The position numbers were made by a program, and so were the translations under genes. From contig JAFQCR010000033.1 of NCBI GenBank assembly GCA_017416345.1, positions 62,001 through 126,000 on the forward strand: a stretch of 64,000 nucleotides of DNA, given 5' to 3'. Positions 6,031-26,067 of this stretch are shown here, piece after piece. The notes beneath the pieces are model-generated. The model made no database searches, was not told the origin of the DNA, and worked only from the letters and a program-made list of their open reading frames with translations. The DNA is from Clostridia bacterium (lineage in GTDB: Bacteria; Bacillota; Clostridia; Oscillospirales; Acutalibacteraceae). Position 1 is the first letter of the stretch. Each line of letters starts with the position of its first letter.

Positions 6031-7812
6031 ATGGCAAATACTGTTTCGGTTGTTGAAAAACCCATCCCCGAAAAAGTAAGCAAAGAGGCTTATGTGCTCG
6101 GCATCCAGGATGATGGATCCGGCAAGCAAGCCCTTTACCGCTTGCCCCTTAATGAGGTGCGTGCAAACGGTGCAAATGACCTGTTTATTATCCCGGCTCT
6201 TATTGAGCAGTACGGTACCAAGCAGGCATTTATTGTGTTTGTAAACGCTAATGCCGAATATGACAGCCTCACCAACCTTGCGGATCGTTTCTTTAAGGCT
6301 GCGGCCTCGGCGGTTACGCAAACCTATACCTCACAATTTTACCGCTATAACACCAGCAACAGCTCCCTTGGTACCAAGATGGCTGACAATGAGGGGCTTG
6401 TTTGTACCCCCTCCACCATTGCCACCGCCGGCCAGGATGATTATGCAGACCTCCCGCTGTTTGCTTGCTTTGATGTAAACTATACCATTGATGCAAACAG
6501 CCTTGAGCCTGTTATCCACGCCATTAAGGGCGTATATGGTGCATTTACTGCACAGCCTGTGGATAGCTTTGTGGGTGTTATGCAAATGACCGGCTATGTA
6601 CGCCGCAGCGGTGATGAAACCACCAAAACCGTGGAATACAAGGCACAGTATGCCGAGGGCTTTATGCCTCTGCCGGAGGCTGTGCGTGCATCCGATAATG
6701 GCGTGCGTGGTTTTGTTATCCACGCCAAGTATGCCGCAGGCTTTGATGCAAACGGTTTGCTTTCCAGCGTTTCCGGTGTACAGCCCGCAACCTACCGCCC
6801 CGGCTCCGAGGGCTCTGCCTCGATCAGCCACAACGGCCAAATTAACCTTTGGCGTGCAAGGGGCAACCAGTATGCGGGCTCCAGCCTTTGTGATAGCGCA
6901 TTTATGCAGCTTATGCTTGAGATCAAGTACGCAGAGCTCGGCAACAATGCTGTTATGAAAGGCTGCCAGTATTACTACACTACCACAGCCATTGCGGCTG
7001 TTTCGGAAAGCGGTGTAAACCGCATTGTGCTTACCGCATCCAACGCCAACTATTTTATTGTTGGCTCCCGTGTTTCCATCGGTACCGGCACAGACCGTGC
7101 AAAAGCAACTTGCTACGATGTACACGATATTGCCACCATTGCAAGCATTGAGGATGTTACCATTGACGGTACCGCCTACAAGGCCGTTGTTTTAGACACA
7201 GAGGCTGTTTTCAACACGGAGGCAGGTGTGCATTACCTTGTACCGCAGCCGTGGCTCACGGGCTCCACAGACGGTGTGCAGGGCAACGATGGCAGCCCAT
7301 ACAGCAACACCAACGGCAAAGAGCCCTTTAAGATCCAGGGCATTGAGGTGCTGCTTGGTATGTATGAGGTGCTGGGCGATATTACCCTTTACGAGGATGC
7401 AGAGGTGGGCTACACCGTTTATGCGGACCGTAAGGCGGCTGACATCGTAAGCGGCAAGGCGGGTGCCAATGCCGTAACACTTGGCATTATTCCCAAAGAG
7501 GAGGCGGCTGCGTGGAAATACAACGCAGAGCTTAATTGGGATGCTAATAACCAGGAAAGCTATATGATCCCCACACAGTTTAACGGCACCAGCACAACCG
7601 GCTACCGTTCCGCAACATACCGTGATGCTTTGGCTACCGTTGGCTGGCGTGAGTGGCGGGCCTTTGGCTATTTGGGCGTTGGCGGCTCCTGCGGCCTTGC
7701 GTGTGCTAGTTTGAACGGTGCCCTCGGTGCTGCTCACTGGTACATCGGCGCCCGCCCGTGTGGATCCGGTGGCAACCGGGGTGAATTTACGCCGGCTGTG
7801 GCCGGCGTATAA
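6031..7812 (+). CDS. DGR target: phage receptor-binding protein with C-terminal variable region
   Basis: The 593-residue protein is the target of the retroelement behind it. An AGGAGG-like site (AAGGAGGA) precedes the ATG. Most of the protein shows no domain I can name. The C-terminal portion from about residue 540 (WREWRAFGY ... HWYIGARPCGS) has the W..IGARP ending seen in C-type-lectin-fold DGR variable proteins. Residues 542-576 are encoded by the VR. Compared with the template, codons 543, 547, 549, 550, 553, 558, 560, 563, 567, 569 and 571 have changed amino acid, while Asn562 is an unchanged AAC codon and Pro576 changed silently. Position in the tail operon supports a role as tip adhesin, as for Mtd of phage BPP-1. 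Lectin fold is inference. Confidence 0.88.
   Translation: MANTVSVVEKPIPEKVSKEAYVLGIQDDGSGKQALYRLPLNEVRANGANDLFIIPALIEQYGTKQAFIVFVNANAEYDSLTNLADRFFKAAASAVTQTYTSQFYRYNTSNSSLGTKMADNEGLVCTPSTIATAGQDDYADLPLFACFDVNYTIDANSLEPVIHAIKGVYGAFTAQPVDSFVGVMQMTGYVRRSGDETTKTVEYKAQYAEGFMPLPEAVRASDNGVRGFVIHAKYAAGFDANGLLSSVSGVQPATYRPGSEGSASISHNGQINLWRARGNQYAGSSLCDSAFMQLMLEIKYAELGNNAVMKGCQYYYTTTAIAAVSESGVNRIVLTASNANYFIVGSRVSIGTGTDRAKATCYDVHDIATIASIEDVTIDGTAYKAVVLDTEAVFNTEAGVHYLVPQPWLTGSTDGVQGNDGSPYSNTNGKEPFKIQGIEVLLGMYEVLGDITLYEDAEVGYTVYADRKAADIVSGKAGANAVTLGIIPKEEAAAWKYNAELNWDANNQESYMIPTQFNGTSTTGYRSATYRDALATVGWREWRAFGYLGVGGSCGLACASLNGALGAAHWYIGARPCGSGGNRGEFTPAVAGV
7653..7758 (+). repeat. DGR variable repeat (VR)
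   Basis: The VR is 106 bases at the 3' end of the target gene, aligned without gaps to the template repeat 221 bases downstream. All 17 differences fall opposite a template adenine (A to G, T or C); 82 non-adenine positions are identical. A GC-rich block of 14 bases (ATCGGCGCCCGCCC, 7744-7757) closes the shared region. After it, homology drops with a non-adenine difference (G versus C at 7760), as expected near an initiation-of-mutagenic-homology site. Confidence 0.95.
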
Positions 7813-7830
7813 GAGGGGCGGTAGCCCCTC
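7789..7830 (+). promoter_or_regulatory. Two tandem tetraloop hairpins downstream of the VR
   Basis: The first is a perfect 8-bp stem, ACGCCGGC / GCCGGCGT, with loop TGTG (7789-7808), covering the last codons of the target. The second is a perfect 7-bp stem, GAGGGGC / GCCCCTC, with loop GGTA (7813-7830), just after the stop. In phage BPP-1 a GC-rich hairpin or cruciform with a 4-base loop just behind the VR is needed for target recognition; the same role is inferred here. Neither has a T-run, so a terminator is less likely. Confidence 0.75.
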
Positions 7831-7873
7831 AATAAGGGATGTGCTGTGGACCCTGGTGCCCTTTGTCCTTGCT

Positions 7874-7979
7874 GTGGCAGGCCTTTGGCAATTTGAACAA
7901 TGGCGGCAACTGCGGCCTTGCGTATGCTAATTTGAACAATGCCCTCGGTAATGCTAACTGGAACATCGGCGCCCGCCCA
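7874..7979 (+). repeat. DGR template repeat (TR)
   Basis: This is the 106-base donor copy of the VR, lying outside any gene between target and reverse transcriptase. It holds 24 adenines, 21 of them in AAY, TAT or CAG codons when read in the target frame. Most sit in AAT/AAC codons, which under adenine mutagenesis can give about 15 amino acids without stops. The TR is followed by 173 bases of non-coding sequence up to the RT start, likely part of the TR RNA. A short open frame across the TR is only its translation. Confidence 0.95.
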
Positions 7980-8152
7980 TCTGGTAAGATTTTTAATTAT
8001 TACGCAGTACATTCCTTGGTGTAAAAGCCAAAAATTGAGATGTAACCGGCACCGCTATTGCGGCGGTTGTGGTGTATGAGGCCACAGCCGGAGGTTAGTA
8101 GAAAAACCGAAAGCCTTTGTGCTCAACCAGACGATCATTAAGGAGGGATGGC

Positions 8153-9262
8153 GTGAAAACATACTGTAAAAAGGTTGACATCACCGATCCCGATACAATA
8201 GAGCCGTGGGTGTACCTGTGCATATCGGATCCCAAAAAGCGAAACCGCCCAGGTTTTAAGCGTTTGAGCAGCCGCTATGGCGGTGCCCACGGTATAGCGG
8301 TTGAGATCACCGAGCGTATTAAGCGCCGTGATCTTGACCTGCCACCTATTCAGTATCGTAACCGGATAGACAAGAGCAGCGGAAAAGAACGCAGGCTCGG
8401 TGTTGAGAGTGCTATGCAGCAATGTATGAATTATGTAGCTGTGTTTGCACTTATGCCTATGTTAAAGGCAAAGGTTGGCGTGTTCCAATGTGCAAGCATC
8501 CCGGAGCGTGGCCAAATTTACGGTAAAAAGGTGCTTGAAAAATGGATCCGCAAAGATCCCAAAGGCACTAAATATTATGACAAAATGGATGTGCGGCATT
8601 GCTTTGAAAGCATAAGCTGCCGCACGGTCCGCAAATTGCTTGAGCGTGATATACATAAAAACCCAACGCTTATTTGGTTTGTATGTGCCCTCATAGGCTC
8701 ATACGAGCACGGGCTTTCCATAGGCAGCTTTTTAAGCCAATGGCTGTGTAACTATGTTATGAGTTACGCATACCATTACGCCTCGGAGCAAATGTGTAAG
8801 GTACGCCGTGGCAAAAAGCAGAGGCTCATTTCACACATCCTTATGTTTATGGATGATGTGATTGTTTTCTCTGCATCAAAGCGGGATCTCAAACTTGCTG
8901 CAAAGCAATTTGAGGCGTACCTCCTCAAGCACCTTGGCTTGAATATCAAGCCAAACCACCACATAAAGCACACAGCGGATGAGCCACCGGATATGATGGG
9001 CTTTGTGGTTGGCAGGGAATGTACAACGATAAGAGCACGCATTTTTGTAAGAGCAAGGCGTGCACTTATACGAGCCTGGAGGCGTATGCAGGCAGGTTTG
9101 CCAATATATCTGCAAAACGCCCGCCGCATCGTTTCCTATAAAGGCTATTTTGTATATACCAACTCCCAGAGGGTTGCCCTTACCCTACACCTCAAGGCAG
9201 TTTTTAAGGCTGCCACAAGGGCAATAAGTATAAATGCAAAGAGAGGACAGGTACCAGTATGA
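8153..9262 (+). CDS. DGR reverse transcriptase
   Basis: The 369-residue RT copies TR RNA into adenine-mutated cDNA that replaces the VR. The start is GTG, placed six bases after AGGAGG; the open frame extends upstream without a good start. Motifs seen: YDKMDVRHCFESI (RT motif 2 with the first catalytic Asp), GLSIGSFLSQWLCNYV with the SQ pair at residues 195-196 (typical of DGR/retron-like RTs), the active site FMDD at 232-235 (YxDD variant), and HLGLNIKPNHH followed by MMGFVV (motifs 6-7). A basic C-terminal region follows (thumb). It overlaps the next gene by ATGA. No Avd-type accessory gene lies next to it. Confidence 0.93.
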   Translation: MKTYCKKVDITDPDTIEPWVYLCISDPKKRNRPGFKRLSSRYGGAHGIAVEITERIKRRDLDLPPIQYRNRIDKSSGKERRLGVESAMQQCMNYVAVFALMPMLKAKVGVFQCASIPERGQIYGKKVLEKWIRKDPKGTKYYDKMDVRHCFESISCRTVRKLLERDIHKNPTLIWFVCALIGSYEHGLSIGSFLSQWLCNYVMSYAYHYASEQMCKVRRGKKQRLISHILMFMDDVIVFSASKRDLKLAAKQFEAYLLKHLGLNIKPNHHIKHTADEPPDMMGFVVGRECTTIRARIFVRARRALIRAWRRMQAGLPIYLQNARRIVSYKGYFVYTNSQRVALTLHLKAVFKAATRAISINAKRGQVPV

Positions 9263-9627
9263 TTGCAAAAGCAAGTTTTACAGAACGCCCGGAAAGCATC
9301 AAGTATATGGTTTTACCCTCCGGGGATGCGGATCTCTGGATGCGTAAAAACATTGCAGAGGTTGTGGATCCGGAAACCAACGAGGTAAGCTATGAGGCCG
9401 ATGAGGCATATATGCGTACCAATGCCACGGAGGCAGAAATTGCCGCCGACTTTGAGGGGTGGTTTGAAACTGCCTCGGCCTGGGAGCCTCCGGTGCCGGA
9501 AAAGAAACCGGAAACCGAGGATGAGCGTATTGTTGCCCTTGAGGGTGAGGTTAAAACCTTGAAAGCACAAAACGCTGTGCTCCAGGAGGAATTGCAGGCA
9601 ACCAAAATTATTTTGGGGGTGGAGTAA
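9259..9627 (+). CDS. Small acidic phage protein with C-terminal coiled coil
   Basis: The product has 122 residues. The first 85 are acidic with several Trp; residues about 90-118 (EDERIVALEGEVKTLKAQNA) have leucine heptads typical of a coiled coil. Small XkdX-like tail proteins with such coiled coils lie at this place in many Clostridia phages. The start overlaps the RT stop by four bases. It is too acidic to be a good Avd candidate, since Avd is a basic, four-helix protein. Confidence 0.6.
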   Translation: MIAKASFTERPESIKYMVLPSGDADLWMRKNIAEVVDPETNEVSYEADEAYMRTNATEAEIAADFEGWFETASAWEPPVPEKKPETEDERIVALEGEVKTLKAQNAVLQEELQATKIILGVE

Positions 9628-10032
9628 ATGACACTTACAGAATATGCAAGGCAGTTACGCCCCCTCATTGAAAAGGCAGCCCAAAGCCTGCCGGATGAGG
9701 ATGCCCTCAACGGCGTTGCTCTGTTTCCCCATTGGGCGGTTGGTGTAGCTTACACCGCCGGCCAAAAGGTGCAGTACAACGGGGTGCTTTACACCGTTTT
9801 GCAGGCCCATACCTCACAGGAAACCTGGACACCGACAGCAGCACCCAGCTTGTTTGCAAAGGTGCTCATCCCGGATCCTACGGTTATCCCCGAATGGGAA
9901 CAGCCCGACAGCACAAACGGGTACAGCAAGGGTGATAAGGTTATGTACAACGGCGTTGTATATGAAAGCCTTATTGATAACAATGTATGGAGCCCGGAGG
10001 CTTACCCTGCTGGCTGGCAGGTTGTTGAGTAA
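9628..10032 (+). CDS. Phage protein with two CBM5/12-like carbohydrate-binding repeats
   Basis: After a short N-terminal helix, this 134-residue protein shows two carbohydrate-binding (CBM5/12, chitin-binding-like) repeats: W..GVAYTAGQKVQYNGVLYTVLQAH..TW.P around residues 36-70, and a second with NGYSKGDKVMYNGVVYESL and a closing GW around 95-132. Paired aromatic residues and YNGV.Y repeats are diagnostic. The ATG follows directly after the previous stop. It probably binds host cell-wall glycans and assists attachment; this is inferred from family and location. Confidence 0.75.
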   Translation: MTLTEYARQLRPLIEKAAQSLPDEDALNGVALFPHWAVGVAYTAGQKVQYNGVLYTVLQAHTSQETWTPTAAPSLFAKVLIPDPTVIPEWEQPDSTNGYSKGDKVMYNGVVYESLIDNNVWSPEAYPAGWQVVE

Positions 10033-24668: not shown

Positions 24669-25958
24669 TCAGAAATCAATGTGGTTGCTACGAGGCTCGA
24701 ACACGCTTCGGTTATAGTATTGGAGATACTGCTTGAGATTATCACTGCATACGATTTTTTCGGAATATTCAGGCGGCACGTTGATCCCCACATACTTATA
24801 TTCGTCAACGGTCTTTTTGCCGTCGGAATCGACCTTGGTGGCCTTTATCAGATTCCCGTAATCGTCATATTTAAAGGCCATTAAATGAGCGACCTTGTTA
24901 TGTCTGTATTCGGTTTTCTTTACGATTAGATCTCCCTTGTATTTAAGCACGACCTTGATGTCTTCACCGGTTATGGTATACTCTGTGAGGCGGCCGTTGC
25001 TGTCGAATTTTCGGGTCTCGCGTTCAGTTGGCTCGCTCTCGCCGCGGTTATACTTTTCATATAAAGTCTCACGGCCCATACTGTCGTATTCGCGAAGCTC
25101 AACTTCGGGGAGAGGATTGGTTTCGAGATATTTGTATTTATGGGTTACAAGACCGGATTCATTGTATTTAAACACATTGCGTTGCCACAGCTTTCCGTTT
25201 TCTTGGAAATCCTGAAATTCCACAACGTTACCGTCATCGTCATAGCTCCAGGTGTGGCACCTGTTATATTTTCCGAAACGATGGGTCAATTCCTGGATTT
25301 TATTACCCTTTTCATCGTATTTATAATATTTTGCCAAAACCTCAGAGCCGTCTCTTTCATATATAATATCCTGAGTCATTTTGCCGGAACTATCGTAGGC
25401 ATATTTGTGGTGTGAATAATTATCAGGATCGGGCATGCTTAACAGTTGAATAATTTGTGCGGAGGATGAATTATTTGAGTTATGAGCGGTAGCTTCATCT
25501 GTATGTGAAGAATGAGTGCAGGCAGGTTCTTCGTAGACCTTGAAAGAATGTGAGATCATTTCGGACAAAATGTCGCCGTCATAAATGTTTGTAGTACGGG
25601 TTATCCAATTAACACGCCTGTTTTTGCAAGTGATCAATTCTCTGAATATGATTCGGTCTTTTGAATCGTATTCATAGGTGTAGTGAGAGCACTGGTCGTA
25701 ATAACGGCTGTTTAATACGTTGCCGTGAGAATCATACTCGTCGTCAGAGACATTACTGTCAAGCAGCCGACCGTTGCTGTCGTACTCCCATGTGTCGATC
25801 ACTTCGCCGTTTCTCTTGTGCTCACATACCAACCAGATACGGCCATCCTTGATGACGGTGTCCGGGTTTTTCTCTTCGGGAATATCAAGCTCATTGCAGG
25901 CAGTTGTAAATATAACTAACATAACCGCACAGAGCAGTAAGTACAATGTTCTTCTCAT
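24669..25958 (-). CDS. Lipoprotein with YD/RHS-like repeats
   Basis: ATG at 25958 (GTG one codon earlier possible) gives 429 residues. The signal peptide ends in FTTAC, a lipobox. From about residue 55 to 390 there are around twelve degenerate repeats of the form YDSxGxxxxxxxYDxxG (for example EYDSNGRLLDSN, KYAYDSSGKMTQDI, EYDSMGRETLYEK, KFDSNGRLTEY), as in RHS/YD proteins, here without a toxin or core domain. It should be a surface-anchored beta-repeat protein, function unknown. Confidence 0.75.
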   Translation of the reverse strand: MRRTLYLLLCAVMLVIFTTACNELDIPEEKNPDTVIKDGRIWLVCEHKRNGEVIDTWEYDSNGRLLDSNVSDDEYDSHGNVLNSRYYDQCSHYTYEYDSKDRIIFRELITCKNRRVNWITRTTNIYDGDILSEMISHSFKVYEEPACTHSSHTDEATAHNSNNSSSAQIIQLLSMPDPDNYSHHKYAYDSSGKMTQDIIYERDGSEVLAKYYKYDEKGNKIQELTHRFGKYNRCHTWSYDDDGNVVEFQDFQENGKLWQRNVFKYNESGLVTHKYKYLETNPLPEVELREYDSMGRETLYEKYNRGESEPTERETRKFDSNGRLTEYTITGEDIKVVLKYKGDLIVKKTEYRHNKVAHLMAFKYDDYGNLIKATKVDSDGKKTVDEYKYVGINVPPEYSEKIVCSDNLKQYLQYYNRSVFEPRSNHIDF

Positions 25959-26067
25959 CACACGACCGTCCTTTCAAAATATATACGAAGCCGTGACGCC
26001 AAATGTTACATATTTTACTTTATTTTATCATATTGGGTGATGGGTGTCAACATAAGGCCAAGGATAA

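What the first reader, a model, noticed from the sequence alone, without database searches (positions are those of the whole stretch)
7653..9262. Complete diversity-generating retroelement in a prophage tail operon
Ungapped alignment of 106 bases between the 3' end of a 593-residue tail protein gene and a non-coding copy 221 bases downstream shows 17 differences. All lie at template adenines (17 of 24), none at the other 82 positions, and an RT gene with SQ and FMDD motifs follows. Adenine-only variation is the mark of a DGR. Shown directly: repeats and motifs. Known: DGRs diversify phage adhesins. Inferred: the host-recognition role here.
Basis: partly seen in the sequence, partly recalled or inferred. 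Interest (0 to 1): 0.92.

Follow-up and report, generated by a model that had tools for sequence, protein, structure and literature searches.

The report
Prophage DGR with conserved RNA element
A bacterial prophage carries a genuine, apparently working mutation machine (a diversity-generating retroelement) that rewrites the end of one of its tail proteins; the machine itself is of a known type, but next to it lies a conserved RNA structure that is shared with distant relatives and that I could not find described.

Summary
In detail: VR 7653-7758 and TR 7874-7979 differ at 17 positions, all opposite TR adenines (17 of 24; 0 of 82 others). The RT (8153-9262) is DGR-type: SQ and FMDD motifs, best solved-structure match 8ub7 (E 1.7e-56; next, a group II RT, 5.6e-24).

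The window and seven related loci give a comparative test. VRs depart from their own TR at 109 of 178 adenines and 4 of 638 other positions; where TRs differ at non-adenines, each VR follows its own TR in 182 of 184 cells. So mutagenic TR-to-VR copying recurs. One correction: 7758 is G in 8 of 8 VRs, an IMH/IMH* difference, so the mutagenised count is 16 of 23.

That pattern has a DGR RT downstream at 20 of 39 viral-contig sites, against 0 of 59 for its reverse, including RTs 18-21% identical. It is not universal among DGRs.

Verdict: new member of a known kind. The RNA element is the most novel part; the key structural paper was not readable.

The parts
6031..7812 (+). Target gene, 593 aa tail protein (phrog_17147; tail phrog_5302), diversified at its C-terminus
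   Evidence: phrog_17147 E 2e-106, phrog_5302 E 6e-11; family alignment
7653..7757 (+). Variable repeat (VR); 16 of 23 TR adenines changed
7745..7758 (+). IMH-like 3' end of VR: no TR adenine from 7745 to 7757, then the fixed VR/TR difference at 7758
   Evidence: limits inferred by analogy with BPP-1
7788..7809 (.). Target-site hairpin/cruciform: 9-bp GC-rich stem, 4-nt loop TGTG, 30 nt after VR; covarying
   Evidence: 9 pairs kept in 8 of 8 loci, 2 pairs with changes on both sides
7813..7830 (+). Second hairpin just after the stop codon (GAGGGGC/GCCCCTC), stem invariant in 8 loci
   Evidence: it never varies, so covariation says nothing
7839..7848 (+). 5' arm of a predicted helix that brackets TR (partner 8003-8012)
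   Evidence: 90 of 90 cells paired in 9 loci, only one-sided changes
7874..7979 (+). Template repeat (TR), 24 adenines
7980..8152 (+). TR-RT spacer, strongly conserved and structured; presumed RT-binding / priming part of the template RNA
   Evidence: function inferred from BPP-1 (PMC12875486, passages)
8003..8012 (+). 3' arm of the TR-bracketing helix
8065..8089 (+). Sequence-variable hairpin P2 (GGTTGTGG/CCACAGCC)
   Evidence: one search lists the region for 9 loci; pairing read by eye
8091..8117 (+). Core RNA element: covarying 4-bp stem closing UUAGUAG-NNN-AACCGAAAG
   Evidence: model R1
8153..9262 (+). DGR reverse transcriptase, 369 aa from GTG (IGSFLSQ, FMDD)

Best explanation
It is a diversity-generating retroelement of a prophage with contractile-type baseplate genes (type inferred from gene matches), in a bacterial genome whose name is not given; the closest named relative locus is in a Ruminococcus MAG from roe deer cecum. 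Mechanism: a transcript running through TR and the structured spacer is bound by the RT, which copies TR into cDNA and misincorporates opposite adenines; the cDNA replaces VR, guided by the near-identical 3' end (IMH) and a DNA hairpin 30 nt further on. The result is a new C-terminal surface on a 593-aa tail protein, most likely for host-surface binding. SHOWN: adenine-only TR/VR differences here and strong adenine bias in relatives, TR-to-VR concerted evolution, DGR-type RT, conserved covarying hairpin and RNA element. INFERRED from BPP-1: transcript, priming, error mechanism, retrohoming, receptor role. No Avd was recognised, so either the RT works without it or an unrecognised partner serves.
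For: TR/VR pattern. Window plus 7 related loci: 109 of 178 adenines changed against 4 of 638 other positions, and VR follows its own TR in 182 of 184 cells at 23 variable non-A TR columns. Over 28 pairs, VRs differ at 399 of 584 TR-A positions but 273 of 2278 others, close to TR divergence 343 of 2940. RT: phrog_1423 E 6e-54, 8ub7 E 1.7e-56, tree. Hairpin with compensatory changes. Phage genes: recombinase, DNA polymerase, portal, major head, tape measure, baseplate wedge, Gp48, endolysin.
Against: No reads, so present activity of this copy is unseen. No Avd in the genome (NF033474, 0 matches), whereas BPP-1 needs it (PMC12875486, passages) and one paper calls it essential (PMC10743442, passage). 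Hairpin loops (TGTG x3, GCAG x2, GTAG x2, GTAA x1) do not fit the GRNA consensus of PMC3240598. No significant match to a solved protein or to BPP-1 Mtd for the target. The active-site tyrosine is F (FMDD), also in close relatives.
Confidence: 0.95

Rival explanations
1. A DGR that has stopped working in this copy: the VR/TR difference is an old record.
For: No reads; only one VR and one TR in the genome; the three other genomes of the genus searched lack it.
Against: RT, TR, IMH, hairpin and spacer all look intact; 16 of 23 adenines changed but none of 82 other positions, which decay would not preserve; relatives show repeated TR-to-VR copying.
Confidence: 0.15
2. A duplicated 3' gene end that diverges by ordinary mutation and selection, with an unrelated RT beside it.
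For: TR is in the VR reading frame, as a duplicate would be.
Against: Adenine-only changes, p 1.8e-14; the bias recurs over 8 loci, nominal p 1e-81, and VR follows TR at non-adenines in 182 of 184 cells.
Confidence: 0.01
3. The RT belongs to a group II intron, retron or defence RT and only happens to lie next to a repeat.
For: Weak matches to TIGR04416 (48 bits, cut-off 300) and to retron St85 and Drt3a models far under cut-off.
Against: SQ motif; order target-TR-RT kept in the 7 relatives compared.
Confidence: 0.01
4. The conserved UUAGUAG...CGAAAG element controls translation of the RT (it lies about 40 nt before the start codon) instead of being part of the template RNA that the RT binds.
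For: Position close to the ribosome-binding site; same place in relatives.
Against: In BPP-1 the TR-to-RT spacer folds and recruits the RT-Avd complex (PMC12875486, passages of the introduction); conserved blocks run through the whole spacer, not only near the start codon.
Confidence: 0.25

Closest known systems
Bordetella phage BPP-1 DGR (mtd-avd-TR-brt)
   Same: VR at the 3' end of a tail gene, TR between target and RT, adenine-directed changes, IMH/IMH* difference, GC-rich hairpin after VR, spacer between TR and RT; the RT profile's best solved match is a 328-aa RT, the length of Brt
   Different: No avd recognised; loop not GRNA; hairpin 30 nt away, within the 4-34 bp range given in PMC3240598; BPP-1's RT lies across a 94/92 branch of the midpoint-rooted tree; the UUAGUAG...CGAAAG element was not detected in BPP-1
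Phage DGR RTs in public records: Butyrivibrio phage Arawn, Faecalibacterium phage FP_Epona, Lactobacillus phage LBR48, archaeal virus vir215; Faecalibacterium prophages of PMC11792537 (passages)
   Same: RT gene in a tail/lysis region; same 32-row side of the RT tree; element-like sites before the RT in Arawn and LBR48 (p 0.005 each); vir215's upstream gene is annotated phrog_5302, which the window's target also matches
   Different: RT identity 24-36% to the 30 phage records found; target of FP_Epona and of vir215 not significantly similar; no element detected in FP_Epona (p 0.51)
Uncultured human-faecal phages MT835485, MT835469, MT836575, MT835477, MT839517
   Same: Target-like (27-30%) and RT-like protein (30-36%) side by side; model R1 matches just before the RT in four of the five, two of which (MT836575, MT835477) are rows of the model
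   Different: Unannotated records; their TR/VR were not analysed
IMG/VR phages L007-L014 and Ruminococcus MAG locus L022
   Same: Same element: 77-97% RT identity, same target family, hairpins and spacer
   Different: The 8 VRs compared (window included) are all different; L008, L013, L014 and L022 carry extra spacer sequence that reads as two hairpins

Membership tests
Diversity-generating retroelement | TR/VR pair with differences confined to TR adenines | tested here: met
   in relatives 109 of 178 A against 4 of 638 others
Diversity-generating retroelement | RT of the DGR type (SQ motif, separate from group II and retron RTs) | tested here: met
   (retron RTs only through; none in the tree)
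Diversity-generating retroelement | VR at or near the 3' end of a protein-coding gene | tested here: met
Diversity-generating retroelement | Repeated TR-to-VR information transfer | tested here: met
   comparative only: 182 of 184 cells
Diversity-generating retroelement | IMH / IMH* at the 3' ends | tested here: met
   VR G against TR A or T at 7758 in 8 of 8 loci
Diversity-generating retroelement | Hairpin after VR: 7-10 bp GC-rich stem, 4-nt loop, 4-34 bp from VR (PMC3240598) | tested here: met
   stem, loop size and distance fit
Diversity-generating retroelement | Loop consensus GRNA of that hairpin (PMC3240598) | tested here: not met
   TGTG here; TGTG, GCAG, GTAG or GTAA in relatives. A consensus of the phage examples shown there, not used to define the family
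Diversity-generating retroelement | Accessory protein Avd | tested here: not met
   NF033474: 0 matches in own genome; next gene 9259-9627 no Avd match. PMC10743442 (passage) says the cassette 'usually' holds it and calls it essential; whether DGRs without it work was not tested
Diversity-generating retroelement | Mutagenic cDNA synthesis and retrohoming activity | not testable with these tools
   needs reads or bench work
C-type lectin fold target | VR-bearing domain has the C-type lectin fold | tested here: inconclusive
   searches give no significant match; structure prediction off
Rfam-listed RNA families | Match of the spacer to a described family | tested here: not met
   over 7400-9400: only a sub-threshold PinT hit on the other strand at 9140-9205

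The most novel reading that the evidence does not exclude
DGR template RNAs of one large phage lineage share an undescribed core: a variable, covarying stem closing UUAGUAG-(NNN or a hairpin)-(AA)CCGAAAG, placed directly upstream of the RT gene. It would be the RT's docking or priming site, taking over work done by Avd plus spacer in BPP-1, and it would allow DGRs to be found and their template RNA delimited from RNA alone.
Probability: 0.45. Interest if true: 0.65.

Novelty: new member of a known kind. Interest (0 to 1): 0.45.

Why it matters
As a DGR it adds one more phage lineage with a self-diversifying tail protein. The eight-locus comparison gives clean evidence of mutagenic TR-to-VR copying without reads, because non-adenine TR changes are mirrored in each VR. 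The conserved RNA element makes an open question testable: how DGR RTs without a recognisable Avd recognise and prime their template RNA, and whether a common RNA core underlies DGRs that do not share TR or target sequence.

Tried and rejected
Rejected readings: ordinary duplicate divergence, group II intron or retron RT (see rivals). The 17th difference (7758) as mutagenesis: rejected, G in 8 of 8 VRs. The 122-aa gene after the RT (9259-9627) as Avd: no match; it is present in 6 of 6 loci read, the window included.

Universality of the RNA element: not supported. With a scored motif against shuffles, p of 0.025 or less was reached by 11 of 29 DGR loci, 3 of which (L016, L019, L026) are rows of the model, and by 1 of 14 group II controls; the site in L077 is badly placed. 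In a second set it was 3 of 20 new DGR loci, of which L148 is implausibly long, and 0 of 8 others; two further rows there, L138 = the window and L139 = L081 again, were left out of that count. So by this test the excess over controls is modest. Hairpin-insert variants in L073, L075, L080, L083 and L143, L149, L156, L158, L163 were seen by eye only and are not counted. L085, L087, L093 and L106, where an avd-like frame end (my reading) stands right before the RT, reach no significance. A search of 391 genomes with model R1 gave 31 matches up to E 0.5 outside the window's own genome: the best, G157 (E 0.0036), ends directly before a DGR RT; of the 30 others 28 were read (L110-L137) and none has a DGR-type RT frame on the strand of the match (L127 has a motif-like frame on the other strand). 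In a set of 28 further loci R1 gave 4 matches up to E 1, one of them (L146) before a DGR RT. The reversed control pattern hit more stretches (59) than the real one (39), so the pattern is not rare as such; only its place is special.

attL/attR: no shared repeat over 14 bp found. C-type lectin fold: no evidence. Literature searches returned off-topic lists; one search gave one unrelated paper, seen as a listing.
Full report
OBSERVATION. The repeat pair is real. VR 7653-7758 and TR 7874-7979 align without gaps at spacing 221 with 17 differences, all at TR adenines (17 of 24 A; 0 of 82 other positions; chance 1.8e-14). VR lies at the 3' end of a 593-aa ORF (6031-7812) and 23 of the 24 TR adenines fall on codon positions 1 or 2. 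The RT ORF carries IGSFLSQ and FMDD and ends at 9262. One of the 17 differences should be dropped: 7758 is G in 8 of 8 VRs, with A (6) or T (2) in their TRs, so it marks the IMH/IMH* boundary.

COMPARATIVE TEST. RT searches gave relatives in viral contigs (13 loci) and one in genome contigs (L022, a Ruminococcus MAG from roe deer cecum). I compared the window with seven of them that hold both repeats (L007, L008, L009, L010, L013, L014, L022). L011 and L012 show the same repeats as L010; L020 and L021 are the contigs of L008 and L013; L015-L019 were not used, nor L029, found later. Over 102 columns VR departs from its own TR at 109 of 178 adenines and 4 of 638 other positions; bases found opposite adenines were A 69, G 51, T 43, C 15. 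At the 23 non-adenine columns where TRs differ between loci, VR matches its own TR in 182 of 184 cells. Over 28 pairs, VRs differ at 399 of 584 TR-A positions but only 273 of 2278 others, close to TR divergence (343 of 2940). The loci are related, so cells are not independent and the p value (1e-81) is nominal, but mirrored TR changes are best explained by repeated TR-to-VR copying. L007 is odd: the 3' half of its TR equals its VR; it was kept in the counts.

RT. Pfam RVT_1 E 5.5e-11; phrog_1423 E 5.9e-54 (this family takes in YADD, group II-like RTs as well as DGR RTs). A profile of 18 RTs finds 8ub7_A, 328 aa, at E 1.7e-56; next come a group II RT (6ar1, 5.6e-24) and 5hhj (2.9e-23, named 'retron-type reverse transcriptase'); chains named retron RT reach 2.9e-6 at best. 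The table names 8ub7 only 'Reverse transcriptase'; that it is BPP-1 Brt is inferred from its length (328 aa) and recalled. In a 52-row tree the nine group II RTs form one side of a 100/100 branch; the window groups with L008, L013 and L010 (100/100). The tree is midpoint-rooted and holds no retrons.

SETTING. The window is C32:62001-126000 of a 2.47 Mb, 38-contig genome without a name. Upstream on the contig lie a serine recombinase (ORF C32:29813-31255), DNA polymerase, helicases, portal, minor and major head proteins and tape measure. In the window lie a tail protein, a baseplate wedge subunit, a Mu Gp48-like protein and a tail-fibre-like gene, then the DGR, a CBM5/12 protein and an amidase-SPOR endolysin. 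Right of 11759 come a tRNA-Ala and host-type genes. So the prophage spans roughly 44 kb; its ends were not fixed. Only one VR and one TR were found in the genome. Of 98 genomes searched, the window's own included, 3 carry a related RT; in the genus it is 1 of 4, again the own one included. No Avd: NF033474 has 0 matches in the genome at E 1.

TARGET-SITE HAIRPIN. 7788-7809 forms a 9-bp stem with a 4-nt loop 30 nt after VR. In 8 loci all 9 pairs are kept and two pairs show changes on both sides (C-G/G-C in 5 and 3 loci, U-A/C-G in 7 and 1). Counted together with the invariant second hairpin, slid controls pair 33-57% of cells against 100%; the covariation score is reached by 1 of 500 shuffles, but the mere number of pairs with double changes by 56 of 500, so the support rests on few changes. 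In L009, L010 and L013 the stop codon sits in the loop, so the stem is kept although its 3' arm is coding in some loci and not in others. Size, GC content and distance fit the BPP-1-type hairpin (PMC3240598, passages read); the loop sequence does not fit GRNA.

TEMPLATE RNA. The TR-RT spacer is highly conserved and structured. A predicted helix 7839-7848/8003-8012 brackets TR and pairs in 90 of 90 cells over 9 loci, but only with one-sided changes, so it is plausible and unproven. A hairpin at 8016-8031 changes from UUGG/CCAA to UCGG/CCGA between loci, and the one at 8065-8089 changes sequence while staying largely able to pair (sequences, pairing read by eye). The most striking part is 8091-8117: a stem closing UUAGUAG-NNN-AACCGAAAG, about 40 nt before the RT start. 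In 27 aligned loci (26 distinct; 13 fetched by protein similarity, 14 by a pattern that fixes the loop and the G before it) the four inner pairs form in 99.0% of cells, all four with changes on both sides and 15 such cells, against at most 2 pairs and 2 cells in slid controls, and 0 of 500 shuffles reach the cells paired. Four further pairs outwards fail in 10 to 19 of 26 rows, so a longer stem is not general.

HOW FAR THE ELEMENT REACHES. An exact pattern for its two halves, scanned over the viral contigs, hit 39 stretches; 20 have a DGR-type RT frame opening within 250 nt downstream, in 17 distinct contexts, while the reversed pattern hit 59 stretches with 0 such RTs. By reading, four more of the 39 (L029, L030, L052, L067) begin an RT that runs off the stretch held, and L047 precedes a broken RT. 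The RTs found include a separate 100/100 clade with YCDD (L040, L050, L054, L063, L065); L054, L063, L065 and the separate L059 are 18-21% identical to the window's RT. Their repeats were not examined. In L036 the repeats look unrelated to the window's (read by eye). Model R1, run on 34 sources of which 31 were not in it, gave 9 matches up to E 2: the window and two other model rows; L047 (broken RT); L086 (E 0.0004), L027 (0.003), L024 (0.07) and L068 (0.11), each ending within about 60 nt before an RT match found by protein; and one at E 1.5 that is not. The other sources gave nothing, BPP-1 among them. Against universality see the counts under Tried and rejected. No Rfam family matches the window's stretch.

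LITERATURE. Passages, not whole papers, were read of PMC3240598, PMC8144416, PMC12875486, PMC11792537, PMC10743442 and PMC8867640. PMC12875486 states that in BPP-1 the spacer between TR and brt folds, recruits bRT-Avd and primes cDNA from an internal adenine. PMC8144416 describes six DGR clades, of which 1, 4 and 6 are found almost only in viruses; I did not assign the window to one. [quoted passage not shown] A full-text search for DGR papers with TTAGTAG gave 0. The cryo-EM paper (PMC11995886) and the large DGR survey (PMC5758913) are not held. I recall the former as suggesting that its RNA mechanisms are conserved in distant DGRs, so the element may already be described there.

VERDICT. An ordinary kind of system, well supported, with good comparative evidence of function in its lineage; the lack of a recognisable Avd and the shared RNA core lift it somewhat. 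Interest 0.45.

Noticed in passing
L007:1752-1862 (TR) and L007:1531-1641 (VR): The 3' half of this relative's TR equals its VR with adenines lost: either a VR-to-TR back-copy or an assembly chimera.
   Followed up: no
L008, L013, L014, L022, TR-RT spacer: Extra spacer sequence that reads as two hairpins, with loops such as GCAA (L013) and GAAA (L022), absent in the window, L007, L009, L010 and L029 (hairpins read by eye).
   Followed up: partly
L047:9025-9071 and following: The RNA element precedes a DGR RT remnant whose frame stops after 60 codons.
   Followed up: no
window 9259-9627: 122-aa protein overlapping the RT stop codon, present in 6 of 6 loci read (window included), without assigned function.
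   Followed up: partly
window 9628-10032: Small phage protein with a strong CBM5/12 carbohydrate-binding match (E 9e-21) downstream of the DGR.
   Followed up: no
L005, L006 (genome G054): Two DGR RTs with nearly the same upstream element on two contigs of one related genome.
   Followed up: no
window 24669-25961, minus strand: 430-aa ORF with an RHS-repeat match (E 1.8e-8), outside the prophage.
   Followed up: no
L043, L049, L055, L056, L060: Five contigs share a sequence matching the element's pattern without an RT; it looks like the start of a coding gene, so probably coincidence (read by eye).
   Followed up: partly
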